A stretch of 64,000 nucleotides of DNA, taken from positions 27,803,892 through 27,867,891 of the forward strand of contig NC_073311.1 in NCBI RefSeq assembly GCF_027595985.1, given 5' to 3'. Below the pieces are notes generated by a model. The model was not told the DNA's origin. It did no database searches and saw nothing but the letters and a program-made list of their open reading frames with translations. Shown one piece after another: positions 902 to 63,126 of the stretch. Position 1 is the stretch's first letter. Every line of letters starts with the position of its first letter. The stretch is from Sorex araneus (Eukaryota; Chordata; Mammalia; Eulipotyphla; Soricidae). A program made the translations under genes and the position numbers.

Positions 902-1080
902 ATTTTTTTTTGTTTTTGCTTTTTGGGTCACACCCAGTGATGCTCAGGGGTTATTTCTGGCTTTGCACTCAAAAATCACTTCTGACAGTGCTCAGTGGAC
1001 CACATGGGATGCTGGGAATCGAACCCAGGTGGGCCACGTGCAAGGCAAATGCCCTACCCGTTGTGCTATTGCTCTAGCCC
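902..1080 (-). mobile_element. SINE type A with target duplication
   Basis: Reverse copy with T-run, GGGTCACACCCAGTGATGCT, GGAATCGAACCCAGGTGGGC (tRNA B-box region) and head GCTATTGCTCTAGCCCC. Flanks CTGTATTTTGTA at 890-901 and 1081-1092 are a 12-bp perfect target duplication. Confidence 0.9.
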
Positions 1081-3813: not shown

Positions 3814-4069
3814 ATGACTGCATGCAAGTAAGTACTGTAATATCTCTCCACCCCTCTCATAATTTCTTTTACATAACACAACTAATTCCCTTCAAAAATT
3901 TGGTTAAACCTGAGAACTTTAATACCCCATTTATTTTTTACCACAATACAACTACAAACTTCAAAGTCACAGCAAAGAGCATAACCAAAATTAACACAAT
4001 ATAAATTATTCATTAATTTGTGTCACAAGAAATAAGTACTAGAATATTTATCCCTTGACTGTATAATTT

Positions 4070-4273
4070 CAGCAGTGCCTGGCAAGCTACCCGTGGCATA
4101 CTCGATATGCCAAAAACAGTAACAACGACGGTTCTCATTTCCCTGATCCTGAAAGAGCCCCCAATACACCATCAGGCTACACTAGCACGTGATAGGGACA
4201 AATGGAGACATTACTGGCACCCGCTTGAACAAATTGATGAAAAATGGGATGGCAGTGACAGTGATATAGTGAT
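4070..4273 (+). mobile_element. SINE type B, 5'-truncated, with extended RTE tail
   Basis: Starts inside the SINE body (GGCAAGCTACCCGTGGCATA, ATATGCCAAAAACAGTAAC), then TCTCATTTCCCTGATCCTGA, then a long RTE 3' end. Read in frame, 4170-4260 encodes HHQATLARDRDKWRHYWHPL and EQIDEKWDGSDSD, the C-terminus of the RTE reverse transcriptase. Flanks TGTATAATTT (4060) and TGTACAATTT (4274) look like a target duplication. The short open frame here is SINE/RTE-derived, not a gene. Confidence 0.85.
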
Positions 4274-4284
4274 TGTACAATTTA

Positions 4285-8040: not shown

Positions 8041-8240
8041 TTACAAGTAATATTAACAATGACAACATTGAATGGGTCTTCAGCATGTGCAAGACCTTAT
8101 TATAAAGGGTCTTATTAGCTTTAATTAACTTTATATTTTTTAATCCCAGACCAGGTAATTTAGTTATTCCCATTTATGAATAGGTAAAGAATTTTCTTGG
8201 AGGCAAACAGATCAATAGTTTGCAAGCAGCAAACCTGAAT
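8041..8240 (+). repeat. MIR relic
   Basis: Diverged MIR: AGCATGTGCAAGACCTTATT, TATTCCCATTTATGAATAGG and GCAAACCTGAATTTTAACC in MIR order. Confidence 0.5.
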
Positions 8241-8732: not shown

Positions 8733-8984
8733 CCCCTGGATTGGATCAATAGCACAGTGGGTAGGGCATTTGCTTTGCATGCGGTCGACTCAGGTTCAAT
8801 TCCTCCATCCCTCTCAGAGAGCCAAGCAAGCTACCAAGAGTATCCCGCCCACAAGGCAGAGCCTGGCAAGCTCCCTGTGGCATATCTGGTATGCCAAAAA
8901 CACTAACAAGAAGTCTCACAATGGAGACATTACTGGTGCCCGCTTGAGCAAATCAATGAACAACGGGATGACAGTGATACAGTG
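8733..8984 (+). mobile_element. SINE type B (tRNA head, RTE tail), full length
   Basis: Head ATAGCACAGTGGGTAGGGCA (A box) and GGTTCAATTCC (B box), body GAGAGCCAAGCAAGCTACCA, ATGCCAAAAACACTAACAAG, tail CAATGGAGACATTACTGGTG, GAACAACGGGATGACAGTG. Flanks AATAATCATTT (8721) and AATAATCACTT (8985) are the target duplication. Confidence 0.92.
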
Positions 8985-9685: not shown

Positions 9686-9936
9686 AAGCATGGTAGTACT
9701 TTTGTCCCATTGTTCATCGATTTGTTCTAGTGGACACCAGTAACAACTCCATTGTGAGACTTACTGTTACTGTTTTTGGCATATAGAATTTGCCACGGGT
9801 AGCTTTCCAGACACTGCCGTGCGGGCGGGACACTCTCAGTAGTTTACCAGTCTCTCCGAGAGGGACGGAGGAATTGAATCCAGGTCAGCTGTGTGCAAGG
9901 CAAATGCCCTTCCCTCTGTACTATTGCTCCAGTCCC
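9686..9936 (-). mobile_element. SINE type B
   Basis: Reverse copy, RTE tail at left (CCCATTGTTCATCGATTTG), tRNA head at right (CTATTGCTCCAGTCCCC). CTCTCAAAA at 9677 and 9937 is the probable target duplication. Confidence 0.9.
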
Positions 9937-17255: not shown

Positions 17256-17268
17256 ACATCTGACATTA

Positions 17269-17484
17269 CTGTTTTTGGCATATCAAATACACCACAGGTA
17301 GCTTGCCAGCCTCTCTGCCCTGTGGGTGGGATACTCTCGGTAGCTTGTCAGACTCTCTGAGAGGGGCGGAGGAATTGAACCCAAGTCAGCTGCATGCAAA
17401 GCAAACACCCTACCTGCTGTGCTATCGCTTAGATATTACTGGTGCCCGCTCGAGCAAATAGATGAACAATATGATGACAGTGCT
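17269..17484 (+). mobile_element. SINE type B with inverted 5' part
   Basis: 17269-17430 is the SINE head and body in reverse (TGGCATATCAAATACACC ... CTGTGCTATCGC). 17431-17484 is the RTE tail forward (ATTACTGGTGCCCGCTCGAG, ATGATGACAGTGCTAC). Flanks ACATCTGACATTA (17256-17268) and ACATTTGACATTA (17485-17497) are a 13-bp duplication with one mismatch, so this is one insertion with a flipped 5' segment. About 15 bases are lost at the junction. Confidence 0.85.
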
Positions 17485-17742
17485 ACATTTGACATTAATC
17501 ACACATACAAAGGGTTAATTTTTCTTGGAATCTTTTTGAGAGTGTATCATGATTTATGAAAAACAAAATTATAAAAAACAAAATTATAAAAATTCAAATA
17601 GTTTTACATGTTTATCTTGTGAAATTAATCAAGCTGTACAAATGAAAAAAATTATTGACACTTGAGGATAAAGGAATGGTAAGAAATTGAGCATGAATGG
17701 GAGATGAACTGGTTCAAAATCTCCTTATAATACTAAGATGAC

Positions 17743-17990
17743 TGTCACTGTCACTGTCATCCTGTTGCTCACTGATTTGCTCGAGCGGGCACCAGTAATG
17801 TCTCCATTGTGAGACTTGCTGTTACTGTTTTTGGTATATCAAATATGTCACAGGTAGCTTGCCAGGCTCTACCGTGCGGGCAAGAAACTCTCGGTAGCTT
17901 GCCGGGCTCTCCCAGAGGGGCGGAGGAATCGAACCCAGGTTGGTTGTGTGCAAGGCAAACACCCTACCTGCTGCGCTATTGCTCCAGCCC
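17743..17990 (-). mobile_element. SINE type B, full length
   Basis: Reverse copy with tail TGTCACTGTCACTGTCATCC, GCTCGAGCGGGCACCAGTAA, and head GCGCTATTGCTCCAGCCC. Flanks ACTAAGATGAC (17732) and ACTAAAATGAC (17991) are the target duplication. Confidence 0.92.
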
Positions 17991-20882: not shown

Positions 20883-21051
20883 GGGGTTTTTTTTGGGTCA
20901 CACCCGGCTATGCACAGGGGTTACTCCTGGCTCTTCACTCAGGAATTACCCCTGGCGGTGCTCAGGGGACCATATGGGACGCTGGGATTAGAACCCGGGT
21001 CGGCCGCGTGCAAGGCAAATGCCCTACCCGCTGTGCTATCGCTCCAGCCCC
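20883..21051 (-). mobile_element. SINE type A, young
   Basis: Reverse copy close to consensus (GGGTCACACCCGGCTATGCA, CCCGGGTCGGCCGCGTGCAA, GCTATCGCTCCAGCCCC) with intact CpGs. A perfect 16-bp target duplication TATTTATAATATTTTT lies at 20867-20882 and 21052-21067. Confidence 0.95.
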
Positions 21052-21067
21052 TATTTATAATATTTTT

Positions 21068-21300
21068 ATCAGTTTATCACTGTCATTGTATCACTGTCAT
21101 CTCATTGTTCATTGATTTGCTCAAGCAAGCGCCAGTATTGTTTCCATTCATCCCAGCCCTGATATTTTAGCAGCCTCTCTTTACTCATCTTTCCCAACGA
21201 TTGGAGGCTCTTTCAGGGTCATGGGAATGAGACCTGTTGTTGTTACTGTATTTGGCATATCGAATATGCCACGGGGAGCTTGCCAGGCTCTTCTGTGACT
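21068..21300 (-). mobile_element. SINE type B variant with extra central segment
   Basis: RTE tail at left (CATTGTTCATTGATTTGCTC), then CAGCCTCTCTTTACTC and GGAGGCTCTTTCAGGGTCAT, then SINE body TGGCATATCGAATATGCCAC. The central segment also occurs at 54024-54196 and in part at 4130-4165. Confidence 0.8.
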
Positions 21301-25839: not shown

Positions 25840-26083
25840 ATCATCATTGTCATTCTGATGCTCATCGATTTGCTCGAGCAGGCACCGGTAACGTCTCCAT
25901 TGTGAAACTTGCTGTTACTGTTTTTGGCATATTGAATACCCCACTGGTAGCTTGCCAGGCTCTGCCATGCGCAAAATACTCCTGGTAGCTTGACAGGCTC
26001 TCCCAGAGGGGTGGAGGAATCAAACACGGGTTGACCGTGTGCAAGACAAATACCTTATCTGTTGTGCTATCGCTCCAGCCCCA
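25840..26083 (-). mobile_element. SINE type B, full length
   Basis: Reverse copy: ATGCTCATCGATTTGCTCGA tail, TTACTGTTTTTGGCATATTG, head GTGCTATCGCTCCAGCCCC. An imperfect T-rich duplication (TTTTTATCATC/TTTTTATGATC) flanks it. Confidence 0.9.
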
Positions 26084-38941: not shown

Positions 38942-38956
38942 ACTTGAGTCATATAG

Positions 38957-39137
38957 CACTGTTGTCCCCATTGTTCATCGATTTGCTCAAGCAGACTCCA
39001 GTAACGTCTCCATCGTGAGGCTTGTTGTTACTGTTTTGGCATATTGAATACGCCACAGGTAGCTTGCCAGACTCTGCCGTGTGGGCAGGATACTCTTGGT
39101 AGCATGCCTAGCTCTCCAGGAGGGATGAAGAAATGAA
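38957..39137 (-). mobile_element. SINE type B lacking its tRNA head
   Basis: Reverse copy: RTE tail TTGTTCATCGATTTGCTCAA, body TGGCATATTGAATACGCCAC, truncated before the tRNA head. Perfect 15-bp target duplication ACTTGAGTCATATAG at 38942-38956 and 39138-39152. Confidence 0.93.
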
Positions 39138-39599
39138 ACTTGAGTCATATAGTCAGCTAAAAAAATTTGAATTTCTAAAATATGAAATCATGGCATGCTA
39201 GATGAATGGAAGCAAGGTAATTTTCTCCTACAGTTTTCTCTGCGTTATTGCATTCATGAAACATCCCGAGGTTACAAACTGGCTTCTGGTACTTGTATGC
39301 TGAATTGTGATGCACAGGAATCACCTGGTTTCAGTGTCCATCACTCTCTGTCCCTGTGCACCAAGGGTCACACTGGTTGTGATACTGGAGATCACAGAGC
39401 CAGAGCTGATGATCACATTTGGTATTGTGGAAAGGTGCTGGTGAGTTTAATTGTGGTCTCATACCTGCAAGGTTAACTATTCACTGAGACACATACCTGG
39501 ACCCAGACGTTTTGATGTTACTCAGAGTATCTGGGGTTCCCACTGATAGTTCTCATCTAAGCTGGTCAGCAGTGTAGTACAAAGGTGGAGGATGCAATT

Positions 39600-39783: not shown

Positions 39784-39971
39784 GGAGCTGGAGTGATAGC
39801 ACAACAGGTAGGGCGTTTGCTTTGCACGCGGCCGACCCGGGTTCAAATCCCAGCAACCCATATGGTCCCCTGAGCACCGCCAGGGGTGATTCCTGAGTGC
39901 ATGAGCCAGGAGTGACCCCTGTGCATTGCTGGGTGTGACCCAAAAAGCAAAAAAAAACAACAAAAAAGAGT
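39784..39971 (+). mobile_element. SINE type A, young
   Basis: Near-consensus: GGAGCTGGAGTGATAGCACA head, GCACGCGGCCGACCCGGGTT, CTGAGCACCGCCAGGGGTGA, GGGTGTGACCCAAAAAGC, A-rich tail. TTTTTATTGA at 39774 and 39972 is the target duplication. Confidence 0.95.
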
Positions 39972-40370
39972 TTTTTATTGAAAGAACACTTTTTAGAAAA
40001 TTCATGGGTGAGTTGGAGAAAACATGAGCTTGTACAAAAGCTCCAATAACTTTTATAATACTGAAGATAAATGCAATATTTCTGATTGCTGACCCTACTT
40101 ACAGTGTCCCAAGTTGAAATACCTCACTAAATGAAGAAAAATGGATTATAGAAAATTATTCAGCTACCTGACAATTTTCACTCAAATATGATTGAATTAT
40201 TTGTTATATCAAGAAAAGTAATGTTTCAGTTAAAGAAATTTACTCTTGTTGTTGAAGTATAGAAAACAGAAAGAAGTGACTCTTCTGAAGCATCTCCCTA
40301 TGAGTGCTGGCCTGGCTGAGAACCTCTATCACATCTTGGCGTAATGAACTCTGCATTGACTTATAACAAA

Positions 40371-43393: not shown

Positions 43394-43636
43394 AGGGGGC
43401 TGGAGCAATAGTACAGCAGGTAGGGCATTCACATTGCACGTGGCCGACCCGGGTTCAATTCTTCCGCCCCTCTCAGAGAGCCCCGCAAGCTGCCGAGAGT
43501 ATCTCGTCCACGTGGCCGAGCCTGGCAAGCTACTCGTGGTGTATTTGATATGCCAAAAACAGTAAGAAGTCTCACAATGGAGATGTTACTGGTGCCTGCT
43601 CGAGCAAATCGATGAGCAATGGGAGGACAATGATAC
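43394..43636 (+). mobile_element. SINE type B, full length
   Basis: GGGGCTGGAGCAATAGTACA head, CCGACCCGGGTTCAATTC, ATTTGATATGCCAAAAACAG, tail GCCTGCTCGAGCAAATCGAT. Confidence 0.93.
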
Positions 43637-43641
43637 AGTGA

Positions 43642-44216: not shown

Positions 44217-44322
44217 GAGGAAGGAAGGAAGGAAGGAAGGAAGGAAGGAAGGAAGGAAGGAAGGAAGGAAGGAAGGAAGGAAGGAAGGAAGGAAGGAAGG
44301 AAGGAAGGAAGGAAGGAAGGAA
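44217..44322. repeat. (GGAA)n microsatellite, about 26 units
   Basis: 106 bases of pure GGAA repeats. GGAA is the core of ETS-factor sites, so a long array can act as a regulatory element; no evidence of that here. Confidence 0.98.
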
Positions 44323-45150
44323 TAAAAAATTTGGTTTAAACTTAATGTCTTATGTCTACCCTGAGGGTGATATAAAGGTTCATTTTTAAAAGACAAAAAT
44401 AAATTAAATAGGAACCATATGATAGAAAAATGTAAAATGCCAAAGTTAATTTTTTAAAAGATGAATTTTTAACATATTTAGAAAGTAAAAAATATAAATT
44501 ATTTTAAACTTCAGAGAAGAAAACAGAAAGTAAAGTTCATATAGAATTCTGAGACATTGTCTAATTTAGAATTTTTAGTAGATCTTACAGAGTTTTACAA
44601 ATTAATGTAGAAGATTGGAGATATGGGAAAACAGGGTGAGTGTGTAGAGATGACACATCAACATTTACTGAGTTCCTGATACATATATTTGAGATATGTG
44701 TATGTAAAAAAAGGTATTTTCGCATTACTCTTTGTATAGGTTAAATATTAATTTTAATTTAGAGATGATTTAAAAGGTCCAGAGAATTGATATCTGAAAT
44801 GAAAAATTTTAAAGTAATTGATATCAGATTCAAACCAAGAAATAGAAAAATGGTGGATCTCAAAACTCAGTTCAGTCCAGAGACATTTCATTTTTCTGCT
44901 CAATATTGTAAGAACAGAATTTGAACTGAATATTTATAATGAAAGAATGTGACTTTTCATACAAATAACCTTATTTTTAAAATCCTGAAAATTTTATTAT
45001 CTTCCATCTGAGATTTGTATTTCCACATGGAGGAAGATCAGGAGAAATTCAATATCAGGCTGATGGATGCCTGAAATACTAGTTAAATATATATAGCATG
45101 CCATTTGTAGTGCAAGCACTCCTATTTTATGTACATGATCATCTGACTTC

Positions 45151-45905
45151 GTGGTTTTCCCACTCTCGGCATTCCTTGTGCAGTCATGGAGGTGCTGAAC
45201 AAGTTGATTGTATTCCTCATCAATGTTGTCAATGACGGCATCTTCCCATGTTGCTGCAATAGTGCCAAAGAGCTCCCAGTTGGTGGTCATTCTGGGAGTT
45301 GTCTTCTTAGACTTAAATTTTGCAGACTTTTCTCCCCTCTCTGTGAAGTAGAATTTTGCACGAAGGAAACAGTGGTCCGATCCTGTTTGAAATTTTGGGA
45401 AAACAGCAACATGGGTCAGGCAACACTGTTGATTGAATATGATATGGTCAGTTTTGTTGTGGAACTATCCACCGGGAGACTTCCATGTCCAATGTTTAGA
45501 TTCGACCTTCTGGAACTGTGAGTTACAATGGAAGGTCTATGTCGACATGATGAACTCAGACAGCTTCTCACCCTGTTTGTCCCATTCTAGGTTATGGGTC
45601 CTGATGTGGAGTTCTTTGGGCAACCTTCTCGTTCCTATCTTGGCATTAAAATCACAGAGAGTGATCTTGTAGAAAGTGTGGTCTTCTTTATAGAACTTCT
45701 CCAGCTCCATGTAGAACTTCTCAATTTCTTCTTCATCGTAGTTGGACGTTGGTTCGTAGATGATGAAGATAGAAACTGCAGGCAATGAGCCACATCCTTC
45801 AAGCATAATCATCTGATTCAGATTGTTAGGCATTCGAATGAATCAATGCTCATGGCCAAGTTCGTGTTGACAAGGACACCAACACCACTGATGCATTTCA
45901 TCTGA
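45151..45905 (-). pseudogene. RTE retrotransposon, inverted 5' segment (endonuclease domain), dead
   Basis: Read on the minus strand, starting at the high-coordinate end, this encodes part of an RTE-clade endonuclease/reverse transcriptase. GVGVLVNTNLAMSID is followed by EPTSNYDEEEIEKFYMELEK, then CDFNAKIGTRR (usual GDFNAKIG catalytic box), then LEWDKQGEKLSEFIMST, TGSDH and finally WELFGTIAATWEDAVIDNID...AESGKTTK near 45150. This order is that of RTE proteins abundant in strongylid nematodes such as hookworms. Stops and frameshifts break it. The segment ends at KTTK, and the protein resumes with RCLSSETLEL on the plus strand at 45910: one element whose 5' part has been flipped. Confidence 0.9.
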
Positions 45906-47505
45906 CTTCAGATGCCTGTCTTCGGAAACTCTCGAGCTCATTCACCAACATGGTTTGGCAAGAGCCTCAGGTAATCACAAGCTAATGTCTGAGCTCACAA
46001 AGCTGTGCAGAGAAAGGAAAACCTCAAAGAGAGAAGAGCAGCAGTGTTGGCCAACATGGCAGAAGCCGGAAAAAGTATTGACAATGCTCACCTATCCTTT
46101 GCCAACTACTAGACCAAGATGACTGCCCTCAGACTTCCTGATGGATCTATCACATCTTCCAGAAGGGCGATGGAGAGGATTATTCACAACTTCTACTCAG
46201 ATCTCTTTGAGAGTCACGTCAACCTGCCCACATAACAAATTCTGCAGGATGGATATGTCATTCCCAACGTTCTCCCTTCCAAAATCTGATGTGCCATTTC
46301 ATTGGTAAAGACACGTACAGAGAAGGGATCACTAAGAAAATGATGGCTGGAGGAATCAGTTGGTATGAGAGATGTGTGCCGAAAGTAGATAGTGGACCAA
46401 ACATGATGGCCTCTTAGTGTCTGTGTTGCAAGCCATGATGCCCAAAAGTAGATAGAGAGTATGAGGAATATTGTCCGCAATGGAGGCAGTGCAAGGGTGG
46501 GAAAGGGGACGTATGCCAGGGATATTGTTGTGGGTAATGTGCATTGGTGGAGGGTAGGGTGTTTGATCATTGTGTGGTGGTAACCCAAATATGAAAGCTT
46601 GTGACTATCTCACTGTGATTCAATAAAATTTTTTTAAAAAGATGTGTACAGCACCCGGTCCAGTTAAGGTTAGATCCGAACACCTGGAGAATCTGCCGCC
46701 AGTACTTGTCAATACACGGGCTCAGCTCTTCACATGCTACCTGTCTGAATGCAAGGTTTCATCCCAATGGAAAATCAGCAGGACCATTCTGTTGTACAAG
46801 AAGGGAGACATCCACGACATCAGTAATTATCACCCAATCTGCTTGTTGTCCATTGTCTACAACTTGTTCACTTGAGTCATACTGAACAGAATAGGCAGAA
46901 CACTGGATGAAGGACAACCATGCAAGGAAGCCGGGTTTCGAAAAGGATTTAGCCCAATCGACAATATCCACATGGTGACCAACCTCATTGAGGTTTTGCA
47001 AGAGCTCAAGATGCTGCTCTGTCTAACATTCATCGATTTTAAAAAAGGCCTTTGATTCTGTTGAGACTGAAGTGGTCATCAAAGCCCTATCCAAAAAGGG
47101 CATTCAAACTCAGAACATTGGATCCTCTGTGAGCTGTATTACAGATTCACCACCAGGATCTCACCATTCTACAAGGAAGTGATCATTGACAAAAAGAGAG
47201 GGATTCAGCATTTCACAGAAACTCTTCGGTGGACCATACAAGTAATGCAATTTAATGCAACCGCTAGACTAGAGGCATTACTGACTGGATCCACGGGATG
47301 TGAAAAAACTGTGTGGCTTCCCACCTACGAGATTGTCAGACTTCTTCATCAAAATCCTGAACAAACAGTTTGAAGCACTTCACGTTTCCGGAGCGAGCAG
47401 ATACCATTAGGCTACACTAGCATGTGACAGGGACAAATGGAGACATTATTGGCACCTGCTCGAGCAAATCGAAGATCAACGGGATGACATGTGACAAGTG
47501 ACAAG
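45906..47505 (+). pseudogene. RTE retrotransposon, 3' segment (reverse transcriptase domain), dead
   Basis: Plus-strand continuation of the RTE protein: LSSETLELIHQHGLARASGN, ERRAAVLANMAEAGKSI and SDLFESHVNLP. After a nested insertion (46321-46637) come APGPVKVRSEHLENLPPVLV, ILLYKKGDIHDISNYHPICL, GFRKGFSPIDNI and FIDF/KAFDSVE (RT motif A, one-base frameshift near 47040). After the SPFYKEVIIDKKRGIQ region about 200 residues are missing, including the YADD catalytic box. The frame then resumes at FPPTRLSDFFIK and ends ATLACDRDKWRHYWHLLEQI at about 47470, with a short GACAAGT-type tail. Several stops make it non-functional. A 15-bp duplication (45136-45150 and 47506-47520, one mismatch) brackets the whole. 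Confidence 0.92.
46321..46637 (+). mobile_element. L1-like LINE 3' fragment nested in the RTE
   Basis: About 317 bases ending GTGATTCAATAAAATTTTTT interrupt the RTE frame. The flanks AAAGACACGTACAG (46307-46320) and AAAGATGTGTACAG (46638-46651) are a 14-bp target duplication with three differences. The same 3' end occurs in reverse at 20440-20829 and 38545-38803. Assignment to L1 is inferred from the poly(A) end and 5' truncation; no coding part is present. Confidence 0.7.
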
Positions 47506-47520
47506 TGATCATCTTACTTC

Positions 47521-49994: not shown

Positions 49995-50233
49995 TAGACT
50001 GGAGTGATAGCACAGCAGGTAGGGTATTTGCCTTGCACACGGCTGACCCTGGTTCGATTCTTCCGTCCCTCTTGGAGAGCCTGGCAAGCTACCGAGAGTA
50101 TCTCGCCCGCAGGGCAGAGCCTCGAAAGCTACCCATGTATTCGATATGCCAGAAACAGTAACAAGTTTCACAGTGGAGACGTTACAGGTGCCCACTTGAG
50201 CAAATCGATGAACAACGGGATGACAGTGCTACA
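49995..50233 (+). mobile_element. SINE type B, full length
   Basis: GACTGGAGTGATAGCACAGC head, GGTTCGATTCTTCCGTCCC, TTCGATATGCCAGAAACAGT, GAACAACGGGATGACAGTGC tail. Confidence 0.93.
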
Positions 50234-50362
50234 GATTGGAGGATTAATTTTTACTGTATGGGTTATAGGAGAGATAGCTATTCTAAAAACTTGAGTCTTG
50301 GCAATTTCATTGGCTTCTTAACTTATCTAATTAATATTTGTTGTGTTGGGCATTCTCCTTTC

Positions 50363-50563
50363 TTGCCGCAGACCCGTGTTCGATTCCTCCGCCCCTCTCG
50401 GAGAGCCCAGCAAGCTACCAAGAGTATGGAGCCCCCAGGGCAGAGCCTGGCAAGCTACCACTGCATATTGGATATGCCAAAAACAATAACAATAAGTCTC
50501 TCAATGATTAATGTTACTGGTTCCCGCTCGAACAAATTGATGAGCAGTGGGATGACAGTGTGT
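50363..50563 (+). mobile_element. SINE type B, 5'-truncated
   Basis: Begins within the tRNA head (CCGCAGACCCGTGTTCGATT) and runs through GGATATGCCAAAAACAATAA to the RTE tail (CCCGCTCGAACAAATTGATG). Confidence 0.9.
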
Positions 50564-52507: not shown

Positions 52508-52612
52508 AGCACTGTAGCACTGTCTCCTGTTGTTCATCAATTTGCTCGAGCAGGCACCAGTAATGTCTCCATTGTGAGACTTGCTGTTACTATTTTTGGC
52601 ATATTGAATACT
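52508..52612 (-). mobile_element. SINE type B 3' fragment
   Basis: Reverse tail TGTTCATCAATTTGCTCGAG through TGAGACTTGCTGTTAC to TTGGCATATTGAATAC; head missing. Confidence 0.9.
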
Positions 52613-54023: not shown

Positions 54024-54057
<34 letters not shown>

Positions 54058-54196
54058 CGTTGATTGTCGAATTTCTCGAGCAGTCTCAGTAATGTCTCCA
54101 TCCGTCCTAGCCTGGAGATTTTAGCAGCCTCTCTTCACTCGTTCTTCCCAATGGTGCCACATTGGAGGCTCTTTCAGGGTCAGGGGAATGAGATCA
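54024..54196 (-). mobile_element. SINE type B variant with (CAT)n tail
   Basis: Tail is (CAT)n at 54025-54056, then CGTTGATTGTCGAATTTCTC, AATGTCTCCATCCGTCC, then the extra segment CAGCCTCTCTTCACTC ... GGCTCTTTCAGGGTCAGG. Same variant as 21068-21300; the tRNA head is absent. Confidence 0.8.
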
Positions 54197-62800: not shown

Positions 62801-62956
62801 GTAACACAATTTTTTTTAAAAAAATGAATATATGCAATTATGGATATACTAGTTAGATTTCATGTGTACTAATTTGTTAAATCTCAATCATTATCATAGT
62901 GAGAAAATAATGAGGTTTGTGGATAAATAGTACACGAGACATTCAGAGTGTGCTTT

Positions 62957-63126
62957 TTTTTTTCTTTTTGGGTCACACCCAGCACTACTCAGGGGTTACT
63001 CCTGGCTTTGCACTCAGGAATTACTCCTGGCGGTGCTTGGGGGACCATATAGGATGCCGGGGATCGAACCCGGGTCGGCCGCGTGCAAGGCAAAAGCCCT
63101 ACCCGCTGTGCTATCGCTCCGGCCCC
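62957..63126 (-). mobile_element. SINE type A, young (NTS intron 3)
   Basis: Near-consensus reverse copy with intact CpGs (GAACCCGGGTCGGCCGCGTG, GCTATCGCTCCGGCCCC). Perfect 14-bp target duplication TCAGAGTGTGCTTT at 62943-62956 and 63127-63140. It starts about 157 bases after the exon 3 donor. Confidence 0.96.

What the first reader, a model, noticed from the sequence alone, without database searches (positions are those of the whole stretch)
4130..4273. SINE type B ends in the terminal coding sequence of the RTE
At 4170-4260 the SINE tail, read in frame, gives ATLARDRDKWRHYWHPL and EQIDE, matching ATLACDRDKWRHYWHLLEQI at the end of the RTE copy (about 47412-47470). Shorter tails with AATGGAGACRTTACTGGYRC and GAGCAAATCGATGAACAACG occur in every type B SINE here (8733, 9686, 17743, 25840, 43394, 49995, 50363). 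A SINE sharing the 3' end of a partner LINE is the known signature of parasitism on its machinery. If the RTE arrived horizontally, the SINE must have acquired this tail afterwards, giving an invading element a mammalian-made SINE.
Basis: partly seen in the sequence, partly recalled or inferred. Interest (0 to 1): 0.8.

Follow-up and report, generated by a model that had tools for sequence, protein, structure and literature searches.

The report
Shrew SINE built from worm-related retrotransposon
A very numerous short repeat in the shrew genome carries two pieces of a larger mobile element that shrews share with parasitic roundworms, so it probably copied itself with that element's enzymes; this kind of arrangement is known from other animals, and this is a further example.

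Summary
The match is real: window 4168-4273 aligns to the end of the RTE copy at 47403-47509 (84% over 108 bp, E 3e-26), in frame.

Two corrections. The 4130 element is not the tRNA-headed SINE but a 5'-truncated copy of a headless RTE derivative that kept RTE 5' UTR and 3' end and lost the middle. In the true type B SINE the body is RTE too: a 66-nt tRNA-Ala-type head (consensus identical to the resident type A SINE), about 110 nt of RTE 5' UTR, 63 nt of RTE 3' end.

Named protein relatives of the RTE are strongylid nematodes and Sorex, then distant sea slugs. Its horizontal transfer is published (RTE1_Sar, PMC6542046); that main text never says 'SINE'.

A type B junction 35-mer has 127,286 matches, an RTE 35-mer 8,083. 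Equally selected copies are equally diverged: 0.068 and 0.072, p = 0.77. Mobilisation by the RTE is inferred, not shown. Bipartite RTE SINEs are a known kind (AviRTE, BovB, hagfish); this may already be catalogued. Lineages lacking the RTE could not be searched.

The parts
4071..4273 (+). 5'-truncated copy of a headless, internally deleted RTE derivative ('B4 type'): RTE 5' UTR piece to 4166, RTE 3' coding end 4168-4258, tail repeat to 4273; direct repeats 4060-4069 / 4274-4283 (9 of 10)
45148..45894 (-). RTE copy, endonuclease part, inverted relative to the rest (twin-priming-like 5' inversion; the two parts abut in L032 at 2081/2082); direct repeats 45136-45150 / 47506-47520 (14 of 15)
45909..47505 (+). 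Rest of the RTE copy (RT region to terminal coding sequence), with an internal deletion and another repeat inserted at about 46340-46640
8738..8983 (+). Type B SINE: tRNA-Ala-type head, RTE 5' UTR, RTE 3' end
9693..9935 (-). Type B SINE; target duplication TTTTGAGAG
17746..17990 (-). Type B SINE; 12-bp target duplication, one mismatch
25842..26081 (-). Type B SINE; 15-bp target duplication, two mismatches
43397..43639 (+). Type B SINE
49997..50234 (+). Type B SINE
50345..50560 (+). Type B SINE, match begins inside the head (position 24)
17265..17486 (.). Type B SINE with its 5' part inverted (17265-17429 minus, tail 17431-17486 plus)
38953..39147 (-). Type B SINE, match begins inside the head (position 49)
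52511..52612 (-). Type B SINE, 5'-truncated
21088..21297 (-). Second headless RTE derivative ('long type'), 5'-truncated
54044..54193 (-). Second headless RTE derivative ('long type'), 5'-truncated, tail (TGA)n

Best explanation
Type B is a tRNA-headed SINE made in the shrew lineage from three pieces: the promoter head of a resident SINE (type A), part of the 5' UTR of a nematode-related RTE, and the last 63 nt of that RTE (coding end plus tail repeat). Likely steps: the RTE entered the genome; internal deletions gave headless derivatives that kept the 5' UTR and the 3' end (the 4130 element is one); a type A head was joined to such a derivative next to the B box, probably by template switching. 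The RTE reverse transcriptase recognises the shared 3' end and copies the SINE RNA into the genome by target-primed reverse transcription. Shown: the three-part anatomy, the shared ends, target duplications, equal divergence of equally selected copies, the counts. Inferred: the order of steps, template switching, mobilisation in trans, and horizontal origin of the RTE (published; here supported by protein relatives only).
For: SINE consensus against RTE pieces: 66-175 matches RTE 5' UTR, 182-245 the RTE 3' end (59 of 63 positions). Head consensus identical to type A over 66 nt. Of 16 RTE 5' ends fetched (the best matches of a search, so young-biased), 12 are intact past the joining point and run on into RTE 5' UTR, none into a tRNA head; 4 are uninformative: inverted (1), truncated (2), interrupted by a type A SINE (1) (read by eye). 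Type B junction 35-mer at 127,286 places with up to 3 mismatches, RTE 35-mer at 8,083, reversed controls 0. Target duplications: 9 of 19 copies score 9 or more, 0.5% of mismatched flank pairs do. Non-CpG divergence of copies chosen by an exact 35-mer: SINE 0.068 (19 of 20), RTE 0.072 (20 of 20), Mann-Whitney p 0.77. Named RTE relatives: strongylids and Sorex, then sea slugs; tree.
Against: The SINE's 3' signature (GATGAR, CAG-type tail) is shared with the headless B4 derivative; among 20 RTE copies that could be called (of 27 examined) 5 have a GATGAR-like variant and none the CAG-type tail, so the exact autonomous partner was not seen. Predicted tail hairpin is no better than shuffles for the RTE and weak for the SINE (z -0.61 and -1.67). 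Only two RTE copies come from the unselected sample (0.099, 0.102), and the selected SINE copies all come from the first 70 Mb of C1. Old type A copies could include other related SINEs. No transcription or retrotransposition data.
Confidence: 0.86

Rival explanations
1. The RTE took its 5' UTR from a resident SINE, so at least the 5' half of the sharing runs from SINE to RTE.
For: Both hold the segment, and direction cannot be read from similarity alone.
Against: The shared 3' end codes in frame for the RTE C-terminus. None of 12 informative RTE 5' ends has the tRNA head. The RTE 5' UTR runs on beyond the SINE on both sides of the shared segment, so the SINE looks like the shortened form.
Confidence: 0.06
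2. Type B copies are one-off chimeras made by template switching during RTE insertion, not a SINE family with source genes.
For: U6-LINE chimeras by template switching are described for L1, L2 and RTE clades (PMC4476161, passages).
Against: One internal junction recurs at 127,286 places, and the full copies share one head joint.
Confidence: 0.02
3. The SINE came ready-made with the RTE by horizontal transfer from the nematode.
For: Not excluded directly, because no nematode DNA could be searched.
Against: The head consensus is identical over 66 nt to that of the shrew's type A SINE, which ends in poly(A) and includes copies up to 0.265 diverged, beyond the RTE copies measured.
Confidence: 0.03
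4. Type B is moved by L1, as the poly(A)-tailed type A probably is, and the RTE end is a passive leftover.
For: L1 is the usual partner of mammalian SINEs (established knowledge).
Against: The type B copies printed end in the RTE-like tail repeat rather than poly(A), and where duplications are clear they begin at the end of that repeat; the window's RTE copy ends the same way.
Confidence: 0.03

Closest known systems
SINEs of AviRTE in birds (Suh et al. 2016, PMC4844689; passages seen)
   Same: Promoter head plus a bipartite tail from RTE 5' UTR and 3' UTR; the partner RTE is shared with nematodes through horizontal transfer.
   Different: Another RTE and another host class; heads there are tRNA-Glu, 5S, 28S or GC-rich. 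Here the head is tRNA-Ala-type and shared with a resident poly(A)-tailed SINE.
BovB-mobilised SINEs such as Bov-tA and Bov-A (structure recalled, no call)
   Same: Headed and headless members built from pieces of a horizontally transferred RTE.
   Different: The RTE here is not BovB by its named protein relatives.
Hagfish SINE1-1_EBu and related SINE2 families (PMC7245038; passages seen)
   Same: The same birth model: internally deleted bipartite RTE derivatives that gain a head from another RNA or SINE.
   Different: 7SL or other tRNA heads; the partner is a hagfish RTE.
RTE1_Sar (Dunemann and Wasmuth 2019, PMC6542046; abstract, sections 10 and 11 and passages seen)
   Same: Very probably the window's RTE: Sorex araneus and strongylid-type nematodes.
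   Different: The main text has no occurrence of 'SINE'.
Sor SINE of the shrew (named in PMC11240701, passages seen)
   Same: A SINE of Sorex araneus; may be type A here.
   Different: Its sequence was not seen, so whether Sor is type A, type B or neither is untested.

Membership tests
Bipartite RTE-mobilised SINE | Head derived from a polymerase III gene | tested here: met
   Head consensus identical over 66 nt to type A; it holds GGTTCGATTCC, which fits the B box as recalled. ARAGORN calls two type A copies tRNA-Ala and no type B copy.
Bipartite RTE-mobilised SINE | Tail made of an RTE 5' UTR piece followed by the RTE 3' end | tested here: met
Bipartite RTE-mobilised SINE | Partner LINE present and active over the same period | tested here: met
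   0.068 against 0.072, p 0.77; both abundant. The exact partner subfamily was not identified.
Bipartite RTE-mobilised SINE | Retrotransposition in trans by the partner LINE | not testable with these tools
   Only indirect: target duplications, 5' inversions in SINE and RTE.
RTE1_Sar | Relatives confined to strongylid nematodes and Sorex | tested here: inconclusive
   117 hits: named ones are strongylids, S. araneus and S. fumeus, then sea slugs at 29-31% identity; several have no name. It fits, but the search is word-based and length-limited, so absences are weak evidence.
RTE1_Sar | Identity to the Repbase sequence of that name | not testable with these tools
   Repbase was not available.
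BovB | Closest relatives are BovB elements | tested here: not met
   Best hits are Sorex and strongylid proteins at 57-75% identity; no BovB-named or ruminant protein is listed.

The most novel reading that the evidence does not exclude
In shrews a resident SINE changed partner: its promoter head was joined to a headless derivative of a retrotransposon acquired from a parasitic nematode, and the hybrid came to outnumber its donor (about 16 to 1 by the two 35-mers counted), making it one of the largest worm-related sequence families in a mammal. Three different internal junctions of the same invader (type B and two headless derivatives) record the route.
Probability: 0.55. Interest if true: 0.6.

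Novelty: new member of a known kind. Interest (0 to 1): 0.5.

Why it matters
If right, this is a mammalian counterpart of the bird AviRTE case: a horizontally acquired nematode RTE was turned into a resident SINE family. Headless and headed forms survive side by side, so the order of assembly can be read. Sister lineages with and without the RTE would make a clean test of how a SINE changes its LINE partner. It also shows that most of the impact of a horizontal transfer may lie in non-autonomous copies, which a survey of the RTE alone does not count.

Tried and rejected
Rejected: the 4130 element as a tRNA-headed SINE; BovB as partner; a tRNA-headed full RTE as ancestor (0 of 12 informative 5' ends of 16). 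First dating attempts were spoiled where flanks or truncated copies were aligned as if homologous; one search replaces them with local alignments. In one search one of 20 selected SINE copies and 2 of 57 type A copies fell below the length limit. One of the 19 unselected SINE B copies (L027, 0.344, probably the 0.233) is a B copy split by a type A insertion; it is still in the printed mean of 0.086.

Led nowhere: the C-terminal protein search (no candidate). A search with the SINE's antisense reading found six unnamed peptides on short ENA contigs, of no taxonomic use. The tree joins Sorex and strongylids but does not resolve Sorex among them. Rfam found nothing in the window. Diagnostic sites in the 5' UTR piece did not separate the forms cleanly. 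Genome-wide counts for the two headless derivatives were not obtained: one did not complete, the other never sent.

Full report
Source. The window lies in a 2.4-Gb genome of 65 contigs. Contig C6 has 169,026,226 bases, the same length as the contig of a protein named Sorex araneus. The genome is therefore taken to be the common shrew; this is inferred, since the tools give the genome no name.

Observation. The RTE copy ends in coding sequence whose stop lies in the tail repeat. Short tails occur in the named type B SINEs and at five further places.

What the RTE is. The copy is 45148-45894 on the minus strand (endonuclease part) followed by 45909-47505 on the plus strand, with another repeat inserted at about 46340-46640. 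Direct repeats of 15 bp with one mismatch flank it (read by eye). In the relative L032 the two parts abut (2081/2082), as expected for a 5' inversion by twin priming. Pfam gives only sub-threshold matches, to Exo_endo_phos_2 and RVT_1. A protein search with the endonuclease part gave 117 hits. Those with names are strongylid nematodes (Haemonchus, Necator, Angiostrongylus, Heligmosomoides, Ancylostoma, Nippostrongylus), Sorex araneus and S. fumeus, then sea slugs at 29-31% identity; several have no name. A tree of 24 chosen rows puts Sorex and strongylids on one side of a fully supported branch and does not resolve Sorex among the strongylids. This agrees with the published horizontal transfer of RTE1_Sar (PMC6542046; abstract, sections 10 and 11 and passages seen). 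Its authors call the direction nematode to shrew likely but unproven; it was not tested here.

What type B is. The consensus of 19 copies from 264 kb is 245 nt. The 264 kb are the window (C10) and twenty 10-kb stretches, 18 from C1 and 2 from C12. Positions 1-66 are identical to the head of the type A consensus; ARAGORN calls two type A copies tRNA-Ala. Positions 66-175 match the RTE 5' UTR consensus with few differences and 182-245 match the RTE 3' end at 59 of 63 positions, so about 70% of the SINE is RTE. Of 16 RTE 5' ends fetched, 12 continue upstream of the joining point as RTE 5' UTR; the other four are inverted, truncated (2) or interrupted there (read by eye). None shows a tRNA head at that point.

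What the 4130 element is. Eight relatives were fetched (L002-L008, L017). The four that reach far enough (L002, L005, L006, L017) have RTE 5' UTR where type B has its head and share up to about 860 bp; the other four are truncated before it. It is a headless derivative with the middle of the RTE deleted. A second headless form of about 600 bp ('long type', six copies compared) occurs at 21088 and 54044. Its junction lies where the RTE 5' UTR and 3' end share the 10-nt word CAGGGACGAA; 7 of 300 shuffles share a word that long anywhere. The three forms have three different junctions. Type B and the 4130 type share a 3' signature: GATGAR in 14 of 14 called type B copies (19 examined) and, with variants, in the 7 called B4 copies (9 examined), with a mostly CAG-type tail. 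Among RTE copies 20 of 27 could be called; 5 have a GATGAR-like variant and none the CAG-type tail. So type B probably came from a relative of the 4130 type, or both from an RTE subfamily not seen here. Diagnostic sites in the 5' UTR piece did not separate the forms cleanly.

How it probably moves. Nine of 19 type B copies have a target duplication scoring 9 or more; 0.5% of mismatched flank pairs do. One type B copy in the window (17265-17486) has its 5' part inverted, as has the RTE copy. Copies end in the RTE-like repeat rather than in poly(A). With the shared 3' end this points to target-primed reverse transcription by the RTE enzyme. No experiment shows it. A hairpin predicted at the shared end is strong for the headless derivative (z -4.09) but not for the SINE (-1.67) or the RTE (-0.61).

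Numbers and age. With up to 3 mismatches the type B junction 35-mer occurs at 127,286 places and an RTE 35-mer at 8,083; the reversed controls gave none. From the spacing of the first 100 exact matches listed, about 2.6% and 2.2% of these are exact (my extrapolation). Twenty copies of each were fetched by the exact 35-mer, the SINE copies from the first 70 Mb of C1, the RTE copies from C1 to C5. Their non-CpG divergence from consensus is 0.068 (19 of 20) and 0.072 (20 of 20), Mann-Whitney p = 0.77. Unselected type B copies average 0.086 (19, including one split by a type A insertion); the two unselected RTE copies are 0.099 and 0.102. Type A ranges from 0.016 to 0.265 (55 of 57), though its old members may include other related SINEs. 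So type B and the RTE look contemporary, and type A seems to have begun earlier. One type A copy sits inside a type B copy (L027).

Known or new. Bipartite RTE SINEs are known from BovB (recalled), AviRTE in birds (PMC4844689, passages) and hagfish (PMC7245038, passages), where the same birth model is given. Ten searches of an open-licence library listed no paper on a SINE of RTE1_Sar (listings, of which I opened five papers). A paper on LINE-derived SINE bodies cited there is not held, and Repbase, Dfam and SINEBase were out of reach. It may be catalogued there. I file it as a new member of a known kind.

Noticed in passing
window 39787-39972 (+), 20888-21050 (-), 62943-63125 (-), 910-1080 (-): Type A SINE: same tRNA-Ala-type head as type B, different body, A-rich tail; the family ranges from young to old copies.
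   Followed up: partly
window 46340-46640: Another repeat with an A-rich end inserted in the RTE copy, apparently with a short duplication (AGATGTGT); looks like an L1 3' end by eye, untested.
   Followed up: no
L027:6841-7260: A type A SINE inserted in a type B SINE, flanked by about 10 bp of duplicated SINE B sequence, so type A was still active after type B.
   Followed up: partly
L034 and L038: Two further RTE 5' ends with inverted RTE pieces upstream, by eye.
   Followed up: no
L033:1559-1997: Two copies of a stretch of about 190 bp (81% alike) upstream of the RTE 5' UTR piece; upstream regions differ between RTE copies and derivatives, as if modular.
   Followed up: no
window 4201-4263 and relatives: The shared 3' end is predicted to fold into a hairpin closed by the tail repeat; clearly better than shuffles only for the headless derivative.
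   Followed up: partly
proteins P0118-P0123: Unnamed peptides on short ENA contigs match the antisense reading of the type B SINE; source organism unknown.
   Followed up: no
window about 44220-44320: A GGAA-type microsatellite of about 100 bp.
   Followed up: no
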